Shown in pieces: positions 14,033 through 18,403 of a stretch of DNA of 64,000 bases. Numbering within the stretch: the stretch's first letter is position 1; each line of letters starts with the position of its first letter. Below the pieces are notes generated by a model. That model was not told the origin of the DNA. It searched no databases and saw only the letters and a program-made list of their open reading frames with translations. A program made the translations under genes and the position numbers. Source of the stretch: Verrucomicrobia bacterium S94. GTDB lineage: Bacteria; Verrucomicrobiota; Kiritimatiellia; Kiritimatiellales; Pontiellaceae. The DNA lies in contig CP036201.1 of NCBI GenBank assembly GCA_004299845.1, forward strand, positions 2,046,001 to 2,110,000, given 5' to 3'.

Positions 14033-15268
14033 TTACAATACGGTTCCAGAAGGAATGACCGTATTCTTAGGAATAACCATGATTCCGTCACGAATCCAGT
14101 ACAGATCAGTCCGCTCATTCTCGGGTTTCCCTTCAGGAGAAAGAATGACATTGTCGCCGATGCGGACATTTTTATCGATAATCGCATTTTTCACCCGGCA
14201 GTTTTTTCCAATTCCGATGGGAATACCGGAAGGATCATCCACCTGCCCGTGCTCGTAATAATCAGCGCCCATCAGGATCGAATCTTCAACAATCGAACCT
14301 TCCCCCACCAGAGCCCGCAGACCGACCACACAATGGTCCACCCGCTCACCGGAAATAATGCATCCATCGGACAGCAAACACCGGCTGAGGTTGCACTGAT
14401 TGATCTTCGAAGGCGGCAGATACCGCATCCGGGTGTAGATCACCTTGCTCATATCATAAAACGAAAACTGCGGCAGCGGATCGGTCAGCGCCAAGTTGGC
14501 AGCCCAGAACGAACGAATAGTTCCGATATCCTCCCAGTAATCTTCGAAAATATAGCTGTATACCTTAAAATTTTCAATGGCACCGGGAATAATGTGTTTC
14601 CCGAAATCCGACTCATCACAATTGCAGAGCAGCTCCCGCATCACATTCATATTGAAAACATAGATCCCCATACTGGCCAAATAGGTATCATCATCACGCG
14701 GCGCTCTCAACGCCTCCAGCAGCTCTGCATCATCCGGTTTCTCAGCAAACTGAACAATCCGGCCATCTTCTTCGGTTTTCATGATACCCAGCGATCCCGC
14801 CTCATCACGCGAAACCGGCTTGGTGCTGATCGTCAAATCAGCTCCTTTGTCAATATGCTCATTAATCATTTCCTCCAGGTCCATGCGATAGAGCTGATCC
14901 CCCGAAAGAATAACCACAATATCCGGAGCCTCATCGCGGAAATAACGCATGGAACGCCGTACCGCATCGGCCGTACCCTGAAACCATCCGGCGGAATCCG
15001 GTGTCTGCTCCGCCGCCAGAATACGGACATGCCCGCCGCTGAACTGATCAAAGCGATACGTGTTTCCGATATGCTGATGCAACGAAACACTGTTAAACTG
15101 GGTAAGCAGAAAAATATTCCGTATGCCGCTGTTAATACAGTTGCTGATCGGAATATCGACCAACCGGTATTTCCCCGCAATCGGAACGGCCGGCTTCGCC
15201 CGTTCCGCCGTCAGCGGCTGGAGGCGGGTACCAGCTCCCCCGCCCAGAATAAGTCCCACAACGTTCAT
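14033..15268 (-). CDS. glgC: Glucose-1-phosphate adenylyltransferase (ADP-glucose pyrophosphorylase)
   Basis: A 411-residue nucleotidyltransferase. The N-terminal catalytic domain begins [15 protein letters not shown] with [20 protein letters not shown]. The substrate-binding region has [20 protein letters not shown] and FAEKP. The C-terminal left-handed beta-helix carries hexapeptide-like repeats ([19 protein letters not shown]). It makes ADP-glucose from glucose-1-phosphate and ATP, the committed step of bacterial glycogen synthesis, and is normally allosterically controlled. It stands alone here, without other glg genes. Confidence 0.95.
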
Positions 15269-15359
15269 TCACCATCCCCTTGGGTTAATTACCGAGGCAT
15301 AAATCAAGCATAGGAGAAGTGAGTATTTTTGCGAAACAAAAGAAAATAAAAATAATCGC

Positions 15360-15388
15360 TTGCCTCGCTCAGGCCTCTTCTGTAAAAC
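15360..15388 (+). promoter_or_regulatory. Probable promoter of tRNA-Lys
   Basis: TTGCCT (15360-15365) and TAAAAC (15383-15388) are separated by 17 bp and lie 57 bp upstream of the tRNA gene, a plausible sigma-70 promoter with a short leader. Based on hexamer match only. Confidence 0.4.
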
Positions 15389-15444
15389 ATGCGCTCCTTT
15401 CACGGGAAAGACCTCATCAAACGGTTCGTGAAATGAAAATTTTT

Positions 15445-15520
15445 GGTCCGGTAGCTCAGTCGGTAGAGCATTTGACTTTTAATCAAAGGGTCCTGGGTTC
15501 GAGCCCCAGCCGGATCACCA
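15445..15520 (+). tRNA. tRNA-Lys (anticodon TTT)
   Basis: A 76-base cloverleaf with encoded CCA. The acceptor stem GGTCCGG pairs with CCGGATC (one G-T pair). The D arm contains AGCTCAGTCGGTAGAGC, the anticodon stem TTTGA/TCAAA encloses loop CTTTTAA (anticodon TTT, lysine), and the T arm is CTGGG TTCGAGC CCCAG. An intrinsic terminator follows directly. The single tRNA next to an insertion sequence and tRNA-like debris makes it a possible integration hotspot. Confidence 0.97.
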
Positions 15521-15523
15521 TAT

Positions 15524-15558
15524 TAAACCCCGTTATCAGCAATGATAGCGGGGTTTTT
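15524..15558 (+). terminator. Intrinsic terminator of tRNA-Lys
   Basis: AAACCCCG pairs with CGGGGTTT, with an inner TTATCA/TGATAG helix continuing the stem, followed by a T run. It begins four bases after the CCA end. Confidence 0.9.
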
Positions 15559-15820
15559 GTTGATAGACTCCAGGCTCGCCCATGCTTGGGCACGGAAAAT
15601 TGCGGAATGTATCAAACGCACTCCGCACTTTTCGAAAAAAGCTTAAGTCCGTCAACATAGCGATCCGTAATACGAGCCCCGGTCGGACCTTAAACTTTGT
15701 AAATGATCTGCTCTACCGGACTTTTTACAGTGCCAATCACTTTGCAGGCATGGTCCCTTCAATCCGGTACTTTATTTGAAATTGTGTTATACCAAACGTT
15801 AAAACTATCCGGTATAAATT
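15559..15820. other. Non-coding stretch with tRNA-Lys-like debris
   Basis: No gene is supported. Two pieces echo the adjacent tRNA-Lys: GAGCCCCGGTCGGACC at 15674-15689 resembles its T-arm/acceptor 3' half in direct orientation, and 15709-15721 is the reverse complement of its 5' end with the D-loop deleted (GTCCGGTAGAGCA). The remainder looks like decayed sequence between the tRNA and the insertion sequence. Confidence 0.4.
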
Positions 15821-15843
15821 TGATCTCTCGCAGAGCAACTGTG

Positions 15844-16773
15844 TCATAACTCAACCTTTATTTCTGCTTTTCTAAGTTCGGACTGCATGTGGATGAGCAT
15901 TTTCCTCATCCCTGCGACCATTGCACATTTATAGGGTTTCCCGCGCGATTGGAGTCCATCGGTATAGGCTTTGATTACAGGATTATACATCGCTGCAGTT
16001 CCGGTCCCCATATACAGCGCTTTTCTGACCTTCGCACGCCCGCCTTTGATTTTTCGTTTTCCTTTAAATCTGCCGCTGTCTCTGTTGTAGGGGGCAACGC
16101 CGGCGAGAGCAACGAGTTCATTTCTGCTGAGCATCGTGATTTCACCGAGGAAGGCCATGATCATCCATGCGCTAACTTCGCCAACACCTTTGATGGCAGT
16201 GAGACAGGATAAACAGGCCGACAGACTCTCATCGGATTTGATCAGTTCCCGGATGCGCTTCTCAATGGCTGTAATTTCTTTTTTCAGGACATTGAGCATG
16301 CGTTTGATAGAGGCATGGATGAAGTCCGGGGAGTTCCGGATCCGGTTCTTTTCCCGTGCACCCTGTTCTTTAAGGTGATCGCGCCTGTCGAGCAGGGCGA
16401 TCAATTCCCTGCGCCGACTCGATACCGGAGCTGCAGGACGTAATTCCTTACTTTTTGCGAACTTGAGGATTACATCCGCATCGATCGGATCGGTCTTGGC
16501 CTGTATGCCTTCACTGGCCGCAAATGCCCTTATCCGGGCTGGATTGGCCCTGCAGATCGGTATATCTGCTGCATGCATGCTCTCCAGCAACAGGCGTTCG
16601 TATCCGCCCGTTGCCTCACAAACAACAAAAGGCAGCTGAGCAGCTCTGGCTGCTTTAATTAAACGGGCAATGCCTTTTTTAGTGTTCGGGACATCAAAAG
16701 ATCGTTCATCCGTCTGGATTTCCAGCGATTCTTTGCTAACGTCAACCGCAATCAGGGTTAATTCATGTTTCAT
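15844..16773 (-). CDS. IS110-family transposase (DEDD/serine recombinase)
   Basis: A 309-residue protein when started at the ATG at 16773 (GGAG upstream); the frame is open 15 codons further. The N-terminal RuvC-like DEDD domain shows the first aspartate in IAVDVSKESL, the glutamate in CEATGGYE and paired aspartates in KTDPIDADVI. The C-terminal transposase_20 domain has a helix-hairpin-helix (IKGVGEVSAWMIMAFLGE), then LAGVAPYNRDSGRFKGKR with the candidate nucleophilic serine, and RKALYMG. All catalytic positions look intact and the frame is unbroken, so the element may still be active. Confidence 0.95.
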   Translation of the reverse strand: MKHELTLIAVDVSKESLEIQTDERSFDVPNTKKGIARLIKAARAAQLPFVVCEATGGYERLLLESMHAADIPICRANPARIRAFAASEGIQAKTDPIDADVILKFAKSKELRPAAPVSSRRRELIALLDRRDHLKEQGAREKNRIRNSPDFIHASIKRMLNVLKKEITAIEKRIRELIKSDESLSACLSCLTAIKGVGEVSAWMIMAFLGEITMLSRNELVALAGVAPYNRDSGRFKGKRKIKGGRAKVRKALYMGTGTAAMYNPVIKAYTDGLQSRGKPYKCAMVAGMRKMLIHMQSELRKAEIKVEL

Positions 16774-16908
16774 GGTTTTTCTCCGTCTTGTAGAGGTGAG
16801 CTCAAAAGGCTCTGTCAACTGTTTGAGATAAAACCGGAGCAGCTTCGGAGGATCCCTGCTCTGCGATGAACGCTGCCTCCGGCAGGTTCTGGGCGCTGAA
16901 TGATCTCT
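16774..16908 (-). ncRNA. Candidate bridge RNA region in the IS110 leader
   Basis: This 135-bp leader upstream of the transposase has hairpin potential on the transposase sense strand (CCTGCC/GGCAGG near 16874-16887; GGAGCAG/CTGCTC around 16837-16862) and carries one of the 10-bp inverted repeats. In characterised IS110-group elements the leader encodes a structured bridge RNA whose two loops pair with donor and target DNA. The position fits; the guide loops were not identified, and the space is shorter than usual if the element really ends at 16908. Confidence 0.3.
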
Positions 16909-17413
16909 TCCGAAACCCCGCCGAGCTTTTCGTCAAAAGCTCGGCGGTTCCCTGGTGCTCCTCAGCTTACTTAACTGAGGAGCTTTTTTCCTCCCCTTTC
17001 TCCGACGAGTAATGGTTCCCATTCTCGAAAGGGGAAAAAGCTCAAATGATGTTGGGATAAACCTACAAGGCGCTGAGGACGCAGAGAAATTCAGTCATAA
17101 AGGGCTCCGCGCGCTCTGCGTCGCTGCGCGGAATAACGCTGTCGTTAAGACCGGAATGTTGTAGTAAATGGTATTAATTGCGCATTATGACAGCCAATAG
17201 AACGGTATATTCGCCCGCTCTTATTTGCGGGATAAAATCATCTCTGTTCGCAGAAATCGCATTTCGGCGCACTTTATCATAGACGTCAGAACTTTCACTC
17301 CGGCGGACTTCACATGAAAAAATTACAGCCTGAGCGGTGCTGTATCGATACAGCCTCACCCGGTCTTAGCGCACCGGGACTAAGACCGGCATACATCTCA
17401 TCGGCAAAGGCGA
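16909..17413. repeat. 505-bp gene-free region packed with perfect inverted repeats
   Basis: No gene is supported. Strong inverted repeats follow one another: CCGCCGAGCTTTT/AAAAGCTCGGCGG (16918-16947, 4-base loop); GCTCCTCAG/CTGAGGAGC followed by six T residues (16957-16989, a textbook plus-strand terminator); CCCCTTTC/GAAAGGGG (16993-17034); GACGCAGAG/CTCTGCGTC (17078-17122); the 16-bp palindrome GCTGTATCGATACAGC (17339-17354); and CCGGTCTTAG/CTAAGACCGG (17360-17389). The last lies just past the gpsA stop and could act as its terminator. The upstream hairpins have no plus-strand gene to serve, since the nearest is tRNA-Lys beyond the insertion sequence. Confidence 0.6.
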
Positions 17414-18403
17414 CTATTCAGATTCAGCTTTAGGAGTTCGCCCCATGAGATCAATAACCGCTTCACGGGGATCTTTCCCTTTGTGGACAACAGCATTCAC
17501 CTGATCGGTAATCGGAACCGGCACACCTTTTTCTGCAGCCAGCTTGGCAGCGGCCTGGCAGTTCCACACACCTTCGGCCACCATTTTCATCGAGGCCATA
17601 ATATCCTCTAACGTTTCTCCTTTTCCGAGCCGCTCGCCCACCCCGCGATTGCGCGAATGCCGGCTCATACAGGTCACCATCAGATCACCGATACCACTAA
17701 GCCCGATAAACGTTTCCGGTTTCGCACCAAGCGCTGTACCAAGGCGGGTAATTTCAGCAATACCGCGGGTCATCAGCGCCGCTTTGGTGTTATCGCCGAA
17801 ACCCAGCCCGTCAGAAATCCCGGCCGCTACAGCCACCACGTTTTTCAGTGCACCGCCGAGTTCCACACCGATAACATCGTCAAGCGTGTAAACACGGAAG
17901 GTGTCATTGACAAACAGCTTCTGAATCCGCTCGGCCACGGCATGATCTTTAGCGGCAATCGCCACCGCACACGGGACACCACGTGCAACCTCTTCGGCAT
18001 GGCTCGGCCCGGAAAGCACCGCCACATCGCGCCCGAGAATTTTTTCAGCCACTTCACTCATACGCTCATAGGTTTCTTCATCGAGCCCCTTGGTGGCACT
18101 CACGATGAGGGCGCTTTCAGGCAGATAGGGTTTGAATGCCTTAACCGTGTCCTTGTAATAGCGCGACGGAACAACAATCACCACCAATTCAGCTTCTTCC
18201 ACCGCATTTTCATAACTGGAAGTCCAGCGGATGGAATTCGGCAGCTTGACGCCCGGAAGATAGTTAACGTTCTCTTTGAAAATGCGCATTTCATCCACAT
18301 AACTTTCGAAGGGTCCCCAGACGGTGACCTCGTGTCCGTTGCGATCCAATACCATGGCCAGAGCCGTGCCCCAGCCTCCGTCTCCGATTACGGTTGCTTT
18401 CAT
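17414..18403 (-). CDS. gpsA: Glycerol-3-phosphate dehydrogenase [NAD(P)+]
   Basis: A 329-residue enzyme with the dinucleotide-binding GDGGWGTALA at the N-terminus. The conserved SATKGLDEETYE, LSGPSHAEEVARG and the catalytic lysine region GGALKNVVAVAAG follow, and the C-terminal helical domain has LSGIGDLMVTCMSRHSRNR. It reduces dihydroxyacetone phosphate to sn-glycerol-3-phosphate, the backbone of phospholipids. plsY lies immediately upstream on the same strand with a four-base overlap, so the two first steps of phospholipid synthesis are co-expressed. Confidence 0.96.
   Translation of the reverse strand: MKATVIGDGGWGTALAMVLDRNGHEVTVWGPFESYVDEMRIFKENVNYLPGVKLPNSIRWTSSYENAVEEAELVVIVVPSRYYKDTVKAFKPYLPESALIVSATKGLDEETYERMSEVAEKILGRDVAVLSGPSHAEEVARGVPCAVAIAAKDHAVAERIQKLFVNDTFRVYTLDDVIGVELGGALKNVVAVAAGISDGLGFGDNTKAALMTRGIAEITRLGTALGAKPETFIGLSGIGDLMVTCMSRHSRNRGVGERLGKGETLEDIMASMKMVAEGVWNCQAAAKLAAEKGVPVPITDQVNAVVHKGKDPREAVIDLMGRTPKAESE

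What the first reader, a model, noticed from the sequence alone, without database searches (positions are those of the whole stretch)
15821..16908. IS110-family element with inverted repeats, direct repeats and a candidate bridge RNA
An intact DEDD-serine transposase lies within a perfect 10-bp inverted repeat (15828-15837, 16857-16866) and an 8-bp direct repeat (TGATCTCT at 15821 and 16901). The direct repeat may be the recombination core and flank. If so, the leader (16774-16908) is unusually short for a bridge RNA, which would make this either a compact variant or an element whose true left end lies farther out, within the hairpin-rich DNA.
Basis: partly seen in the sequence, partly recalled or inferred. 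Interest (0 to 1): 0.6.

Follow-up and report, generated by a model that had tools for sequence, protein, structure and literature searches.

The report
RNA-guided jumping gene inside a repeat
This is a jumping gene that carries its own guide RNA, and the guide matches the small repeated element in which every copy in this genome sits; next to the guide it also carries a folded hairpin that turns up in many unrelated jumping genes of the same phylum.

Summary
Three other near-full-length copies and 30 aligned empty sites put the element at 15836-17069 (1234 bp, minus strand). It is inserted at an AG/CT core in a 152-bp MITE. The leader is therefore 295 bp, not 135 bp. All four bridge-RNA guides can be read. 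The 10-bp inverted repeat is the right target guide facing its target. The 8-bp repeat is a coincidence involving the GATC that precedes the left target guide in relatives. Across 14 lineages three of the guides (left target, right target, left donor) track their own targets or ends; permutations reach the observed score 0, 1 and 0 times in 20000. This is an ordinary IS110-group element that targets a MITE, with two guide alleles in one genome. The unexpected part lies between the left end and the bridge RNA: a hairpin capped by GAGAAUGGG...CUCGUCGGAG. It occurs in 63 of 387 sampled genomes of the phylum (0 for the reversed pattern), in IS110, IS256, IS3, IS21, ISL3 and IS481/ISNCY-type elements, with strong covariation in its stem and no Rfam match. 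Its function is unknown; I favour a shield against transcription entering the element.

The parts
15790..15835 (+). Left half of the host MITE (TNA duplication TTA at 15787-15789); its last bases hold the right target (RT, CTGCGAG on the minus strand, 15827-15833)
   Evidence: Blast of a 152-bp MITE consensus; 30 empty copies aligned; TIR pattern at 48 places in the genome with up to 2 mismatches
15834..15835 (.). Core dinucleotide, RE side (AG on +, CT on the element's strand)
   Evidence: Duplicated in occupied sites, single in empty sites
15836..17069 (-). IS110-group insertion sequence, 1234 bp with one core copy; LE at 17069, RE at 15836
   Evidence: Ends shared by full-length copies L009, L010, L011 (98.7-98.9% over 1236-1237 bp) and by empty sites
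15836..15841 (-). RE end, left donor (CAGTTG-CT)
   Evidence: matched by the LDG
15844..16773 (-). tnp, 309-aa DEDD/serine-type transposase (recombinase)
   Evidence: Pfam PF01548 and PF02371; NCBIfam NF033542
16774..16950 (-). Predicted bridge RNA (177 nt as folded; true 5' and 3' ends not measured)
   Evidence: MFE -70.5 kcal/mol, z -3.85; covariance model hits upstream of tnp in relatives not used to build it
16787..16793 (-). Right donor guide (RDG), CTACAAG, complementary to CT+TGTAG of the LE
   Evidence: 7-nt match; not testable by permutation because LE starts are nearly invariant
16816..16822 (-). Left donor guide (LDG), ACAGTTG, same as the RE end
16859..16866 (-).
16892..16899 (-). 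Left target guide (LTG), TCAGCGCC, same as LT TCAGCGC + C; a second allele (TCTGCGTC) in copies L013, L014, L015
16918..16947 (-). 5' stem-loop of the bridge RNA, 13 perfect base pairs
16957..16983 (-). Second hairpin between the cap hairpin and the bridge RNA
   Evidence: fold
16980..17042 (-). Hairpin carrying the conserved cap GAGAAUGGG..CUCGUCGGAG (cap at 17000-17026), also found in many other IS families of the phylum
17062..17067 (-). LE start, right donor (CT-TGTAGG)
17068..17069 (.). Core dinucleotide, LE side (AG on +)
17070..17173 (+). Right part of the host MITE (duplication TTA at 17174-17176); first bases are the left target (LT, TCAGCGC on the minus strand, 17070-17076)

Best explanation
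The locus holds an IS110-group insertion sequence on the minus strand. Its 309-aa recombinase and a bridge RNA from its left end insert it at CT cores inside the palindromic interior of a 152-bp MITE. From its anatomy: the element leaves as a circle joined RE-CT-LE; the target loop of the bridge RNA pairs with LT and RT of a MITE, the donor loop with the RE-LE junction; the recombinase exchanges strands at CT, leaving one core at each end and no other duplication. Shown here: ends, core, empty sites, the four guides, fold, and coupling of guide to target across relatives. Inferred from IS621 and ISEc11/ISEc21 in print: circle, RNA expression, catalysis. The left end also carries a conserved cap hairpin upstream of the bridge RNA that many unrelated IS of the phylum share. 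I take it as a separate module that folds in transcripts running into the element from outside.
For: Transposase domains. Four near-full-length copies in one genome with the same ends. All ten copies or remnants found lie inside copies of the MITE: window, L009-L016 and the RE remnant L124. Thirty empty copies aligned; the core is AG once when empty and twice when occupied. Four guides in the order LTG-RTG-LDG-RDG; a summed match of 30 was reached by 0 of 5000 first-order Markov shuffles of the leader. Across 14 lineages own-target matches exceed permuted pairings: LTG 98 against mean 74.4 (0 of 20000), RTG 94 against 74.5 (1 of 20000), LDG 104 against 77.3 (0 of 20000). The bridge-RNA fold has z -3.85; 6 of 29 consensus pairs show changes on both sides. 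A model built from 8 sequences of 6 lineages hits upstream of tnp in lineages not used for it, for example L085 3.7e-20, L079 1.6e-15, L052 8.2e-14, L054 1.4e-12 and L082 1.1e-9. The guide rule is that of Durrant et al., PMC11208160 (passages and section 12).
Against: RDG coupling could not be shown: 74 against 74.1 by permutation, because LE starts hardly vary. LT of L009 and L011 fits the LTG of those copies poorly, and a better match lies one base off the core, as also in L014 and L016. The LTG allele does not sort cleanly with the LT found. No sigma-70-like promoter was found in 15700-17300. The weakest family hits of the model are E=0.001-0.008 (L058, L078, L059), and it does not hit four other IS110-type loci of this genome at E<=1 (L091, L096, L097, L098). 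Five of the 14 lineages in the permutation are close relatives and two come from one genome.
Confidence: 0.93

Rival explanations
1. One reading: the element ends at the TGATCTCT repeats (15821, 16901), with a very short leader.
For: The two copies of TGATCTCT exist at the stated places.
Against: Full-length copies extend to 17069 and empty sites join at AG. The 16901 copy lies in the bridge-RNA backbone, and GATC is conserved there in relatives.
Confidence: 0.01
2. The copies sit in MITEs because MITE plus IS moved as one composite, not because the guide targets the MITE.
For: Every copy is inside a MITE; the window MITE has intact ends and a TTA duplication.
Against: Insertion points differ: site A (window, L010), a variant of it (L009), a core 8 bp away (L011), and the opposite strand on the other arm (L012, L013). 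The guides match the MITE interior.
Confidence: 0.06
3. The cap hairpin is not a separate module but the 5' part of a longer bridge RNA of about 290 nt.
For: The whole 296-nt leader folds with z -6.39. The hairpin lies 38-57 bp inside the LE in ten IS110 lineages; for L085 this is counted from its LE at 306, the script having printed 142 from an upstream look-alike.
Against: The same cap sits in IS256, IS3, IS21, ISL3 and IS481/ISNCY-type elements, and other IS110 lineages lack it (L052, L054, L058, L079, L084).
Confidence: 0.3
4. The leader-only remnants (L014, L015, L016) and the MITE half cut exactly at the core (L125) were made by the recombinase at cryptic G-CT sites.
For: In all four the RT keeps its CT core and is joined to sequence ending in G just before CT.
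Against: Microhomology of 3-5 nt (GCT, GCTC, TGCTC) explains L014-L016 without the recombinase. L012 and L124 break with microhomology away from the exact core.
Confidence: 0.3

Closest known systems
IS621 (IS110 group, Escherichia coli REP elements)
   Same: Long LE with a bridge RNA, short RE, target and donor loops with LTG/RTG/LDG/RDG, insertion into a palindromic repeat (passages and section 12 of PMC11208160). That IS621 uses a CT core and a 177-nt RNA is recalled, not read here.
   Different: Different target (a 152-bp MITE with TNA duplications, not REP); extra hairpins between LE end and bridge RNA; two LTG alleles in one genome.
REP-targeting IS such as ISPpu9, ISPpu10, ISPa11, ISPsy8
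   Same: Specific insertion into repeated extragenic palindromes (abstract of PMC1525189; search listing for PMC8450116).
   Different: Other hosts and repeats; none compared by sequence here.
ISEc21 and other IS110-type seekRNA elements
   Same: Noncoding region upstream of tnp, bottom-strand match before top-strand complement, natural reprogramming (passages of PMC11187229).
   Different: In this window's genome the two guide alleles both fall within one MITE family.
G005 element (same genus, 9 copies; e.g. L055)
   Same: 40% identical transposase, same architecture, donor ends and cap hairpin.
   Different: Different target (LT ..CGCA, RT CCAG[GA]) and matching different guides.

Membership tests
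IS110 family | DEDD (RuvC-like) N-terminal domain and Transposase_20 C-terminal domain | tested here: met
   PF01548 and PF02371 over cut-off; NF033542 over cut-off
IS110 family | No target duplication beyond a short core; precise empty site | tested here: met
   Two-base core AG/CT only
IS110 group (not IS1111) | Long noncoding LE upstream of tnp, short RE | tested here: met
   LE 295 bp, RE 8 bp beyond the stop codon
IS110 group (not IS1111) | Bridge RNA in the LE with target and donor loops matching LT, RT, RE and LE | tested here: met
   LTG, RTG, LDG coupled to own sites across 14 lineages; RDG match present but coupling inconclusive; fold; model hits
IS1111 group | Subterminal inverted repeats of 7-17 bp and a bridge RNA in a long RE | tested here: not met
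IS110 family | Circular RE-LE intermediate | not testable with these tools
   No reads or bench data
Bridge/seekRNA systems | Expressed RNA bound by the recombinase, RNA-directed insertion | not testable with these tools
   Inferred from IS621 and ISEc11/ISEc21 in print
Known RNA families (Rfam 15), for the cap hairpin | Match to a described family | tested here: not met
   No match at E<=1 for window 15000-18000 other than tRNA and two low-scoring matches far below cut-off; only two hits far below cut-off at E<=0.5 for L121, L122, L055, L082

The most novel reading that the evidence does not exclude
The hairpin at 16980-17042 belongs to an undescribed structured RNA module, a family-specific stem under a nearly fixed cap GAGAAUGGG(N)CUCGUCGGAG, that unrelated insertion-sequence families and MITEs of one phylum share. 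It acts on transcripts that run into the element from outside, for example by binding a host factor that stops or degrades them.
Probability: 0.4. Interest if true: 0.82.

Novelty: new variant of a known kind. Interest (0 to 1): 0.55.

Why it matters
The element is a complete, readable natural example of RNA-guided target choice in a phylum with few studied elements, with 30 aligned empty sites and two guide alleles inside one genome, so its targeting rules can be checked directly. The cap hairpin matters more if it holds up. The IS families that share it use unrelated transposases, so the likely common denominator is the host. A conserved hairpin they have all acquired would point to a host factor or process that insertion sequences must deal with, and the short cap motif makes it easy to search for and to test.

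Tried and rejected

Leader-only copies as transposable bridge-RNA-only elements: L014 and L015 keep the target loop but have lost the donor loop, L016 has lost both, so they cannot be complete guides. They look like deletion remnants with microhomology. A split-guide role (target loop alone supplied in trans) is not excluded but nothing supports it.

LTG alleles as clean retargeting: L013 differs from L009-L011 in the aligned LE and bridge-RNA part of the leader only at two LTG positions (L011 has one further private difference of its own), which is striking, but the alleles do not sort with the LT of each copy, so I make no stronger claim.

Parent transposon of the MITE: the TIR search and the extra places read showed more MITE copies, not an autonomous element.

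Syntenic empty locus in relatives: glgC/tRNA and gpsA matches lie on different contigs or far apart in the genomes listed, so no MITE-level empty site was obtained.

My first pairing register for the hairpin stem was off by one and gave little support; the corrected register is. Both are reported.

Papers: searches (10 of 10). None of those aimed at the hairpin found a description of it; the library is open-licence PubMed Central only. Seen: passages and section 12 of PMC11208160, passages of PMC11187229, abstract and outline of PMC1525189; others as search listings only.

Full report
WHAT WAS CHECKED. The transposase is IS110-type by Pfam (PF01548, PF02371) and by NCBIfam (NF033542).

TRUE ENDS. 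A search of the window's own genome (one 4.1-Mb contig) gave 87 matches. Three are near-full-length copies (L009, L010, L011; 98.7-98.9% identical to the window element over 1236-1237 bp). About thirty others are a short repeat that joins window base 15835 directly to 17068. I fetched 40 regions around these places, including one upstream stretch that was not used. Thirty empty copies were aligned; L045, a truncated copy, was left out. In 27 of 30 the junction is uninterrupted..CGCAGAG|GCGCTGAGG.. with a single AG; L022, L040 and L041 have small deletions over it. In the occupied site AG stands at both ends. The element is therefore 15836-17069 with core AG on the plus strand, which is CT on the strand of the element. 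Its left end (LE) is at 17069 and its right end (RE) at 15836.

THE TARGET REPEAT. The empty copies are a 152-bp MITE-like repeat with terminal inverted repeats. In several copies it is flanked by a three-base TNA duplication (read by eye; TTA in the window, 15787-15789 and 17174-17176). Its terminal sequence occurs at 48 places in the genome with up to two mismatches. Related repeats were matched in 15 of 28 genomes of the genus. All ten copies or remnants of the IS that I found lie inside it: window, L009-L011, two with deletions (L012 lacking the left end, L013 internally), three leader-only (L014-L016) and one RE-only (L124). L009 carries a frameshift in tnp. Insertions use several CT cores of the repeat in both orientations: window and L010 at one site, L009 at a variant of it, L011 at a core 8 bp away, L012 and L013 on the other arm. 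This speaks against spread as one composite.

THE GUIDES. On the minus strand the leader contains, in order, LTG TCAGCGCC (equal to LT TCAGCGC plus core C), RTG TCGCAGAG (reverse complement of CT+CTGCGA), LDG ACAGTTG (equal to the RE end) and RDG CTACAAG (reverse complement of CT+TGTAG of the LE). This is the rule described for IS621 in PMC11208160 (passages). The 10-bp inverted repeat is the RTG facing its target. For the window alone a summed match of 30 was reached by 0 of 5000 Markov shuffles; the single guides had p 0.023-0.037. I then took 14 lineages of relatives (the window and 13 others with 35-43% identical transposases) and permuted leaders against flanks: LTG 98 against mean 74.4 (0 of 20000), RTG 94 against 74.5 (1 of 20000), LDG 104 against 77.3 (0 of 20000), RDG 74 against 74.1 (12484 of 20000). 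RDG cannot be judged because LE starts hardly vary. Limits: five of the lineages are close relatives, two are from one genome, and L058 and L079 have truncated right flanks.

THE RNA. The 177 nt from 16950 to 16774 fold at -70.5 kcal/mol, z -3.85, into a 13-bp stem-loop, a hairpin whose internal loop carries LTG and RTG, and a hairpin carrying LDG and RDG. In an 8-sequence alignment 6 of 29 predicted pairs have changes on both sides. A covariance model of it, searched over 42 sources, hit upstream of tnp in lineages not used to build it at E from 3.7e-20 (L085) to 0.008 (L059). It did not hit four other IS110-type loci of this genome at E<=1.

TWO GUIDE ALLELES. Copies L013, L014 and L015 carry TCTGCGTC where the others carry TCAGCGCC. 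L013 differs from L009 and L010 in the aligned leader only at these two positions. Both versions occur as sites within the MITE. The alleles do not sort cleanly with the LT of each copy, and L009, L011, L014 and L016 have an extra base between the matching stretch and the core. Natural reprogramming between elements is already in print (PMC11187229, passages).

REMNANTS. L014, L015 and L016 end at internal CTs joined exactly to the RT core, and a MITE half at L125 stops exactly after the core and runs into coding-like DNA. That would fit recombinase action at cryptic sites, but 3-5 nt of microhomology explains the first three, and L012 and L124 show deletions with microhomology elsewhere. I leave this open.

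THE CAP HAIRPIN. Between the LE end and the bridge RNA lies a hairpin whose cap reads GAGAATGGG(N)CTCGTCGGAG (17000-17026). It stands 38-57 bp inside the LE in ten IS110 lineages (relaxed cap) and is missing in five others (L052, L054, L058, L079, L084) (for L085 I count from its LE at 306, where the script printed 142 from an upstream look-alike). A loose pattern hit 26 of 117 relatives, with one hit in all for the reversed control. The strict pattern hit 63 of 387 genomes drawn from the phylum, 0 for the reversed control. In viral contigs the strict pattern hit twice.

NEIGHBOURS OF THE CAP. Proteins next to it were scanned in five batches of ten, some ORFs twice. Transposases found: IS256 type (L278, L282, L299, L313), IS3 type (L131, L133, L136, L143), IS21 IstB (L274), ISL3 (L293), IS481/ISNCY type below the curated cut-off (L140, L292), IS110 (window, L309), a REP-type tyrosine transposase (L272) and an IS4 type (L135). 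In L135 the hairpin more likely belongs to a fragment on the other side, judged by eye. L132 has only a weak IS66 C-terminal match 591 bp away. No transposase was recognised at L138, L139/L288, L141, L271, L275, L281, L284/L311, L305/L306, L315 and L319; L283 has a replication protein. In G198 the cap sits in a repeat of about 226 bp.

POSITION AND DIRECTION. In repeated elements whose ends could be mapped, the cap lies 75-160 bp inside one end and its strand points inward: IS256 type in G274/G363 (75), G032 (86-95) and G173 (115), and an unassigned repeat in G053 (160). It is at the tnp start side in G274/G363 and at the tnp end side in G032. Of 27 listed hits within about 100 bases of the low contig end, 25 are cut on the 3' side of the cap, as expected if the repeated element lies there; G198:C96 and G194:C7 are not (my count from the listing). 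Against the rule: in G111 the shared sequence ends 62 bp 3' of the cap, and two G307 contigs are cut on the other side.

STRUCTURE OF THE CAP. Among 30 non-redundant hairpins from the loci in hand, the base after GGG and the base before CTC form a Watson-Crick pair in 26 of 30, against a shuffle mean of 12.6 and maximum 22 (0 of 10000). Stem pairs 1-4 are paired in 27, 29, 28 and 24 of 30, each above all 2000 shuffles, with four or more pair types; pairs 4-15 are paired in 69% of cases against 40-50% when slid by 1-3. My first register was off by one and showed little. Between two Watson-Crick pairs there are 19 G-U against 5 A-C (one-sided binomial p 0.003, cells not independent), which favours the inward-reading strand as the folded one; single-stranded DNA would show the same. 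No Rfam match.

HOW IT WORKS, BEST READING. The IS110 element most likely works as IS621 does. That the ends, core and guides are as stated is shown; the circle, RNA expression and strand exchange are inferred. For the cap hairpin I favour a shield that folds in transcripts entering the element (perhaps one in three), ahead of a part of a longer bridge RNA or a protein-binding site in transposition. Nothing here tests function.

VERDICT. The finding is a real IS110-group element with wrong ends. The element is a new member of a known kind; the added hairpin module makes the left end a new variant and is the reason for the score.

Noticed in passing
window 17000-17026; L148, L133, L299, L274, L293 and others: Cap hairpin GAGAATGGG..CTCGTCGGAG shared by several unrelated IS families in the phylum (63 of 387 genomes).
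   Followed up: yes
L125 (G000:C1:3295600-3296200): A MITE left half stops exactly after the IS110 core AG and continues into what looks like the 3' end of an oxidoreductase gene (my reading of the translation); the rest of the MITE is missing.
   Followed up: partly
L124 (G000:C1:2814200-2814700): A MITE that contains only the last bases of the IS (RE side), joined with microhomology.
   Followed up: partly
L013, L014, L015 leaders: A second LTG allele, two substitutions inside the guide, in the same genome.
   Followed up: partly
window 15445-15517: A tRNA gene lies directly upstream of the MITE that hosts the element.
   Followed up: no
L306, L304, L305 (G198): A repeat of about 226 bp with TGTCAA..TTGACA-like ends carries the cap hairpin without a transposase.
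   Followed up: partly
L121, L122 (G017): Two copies of the window's exact 28-base cap in a different repeat, in a genome with no related transposase at E<=1e-20.
   Followed up: partly
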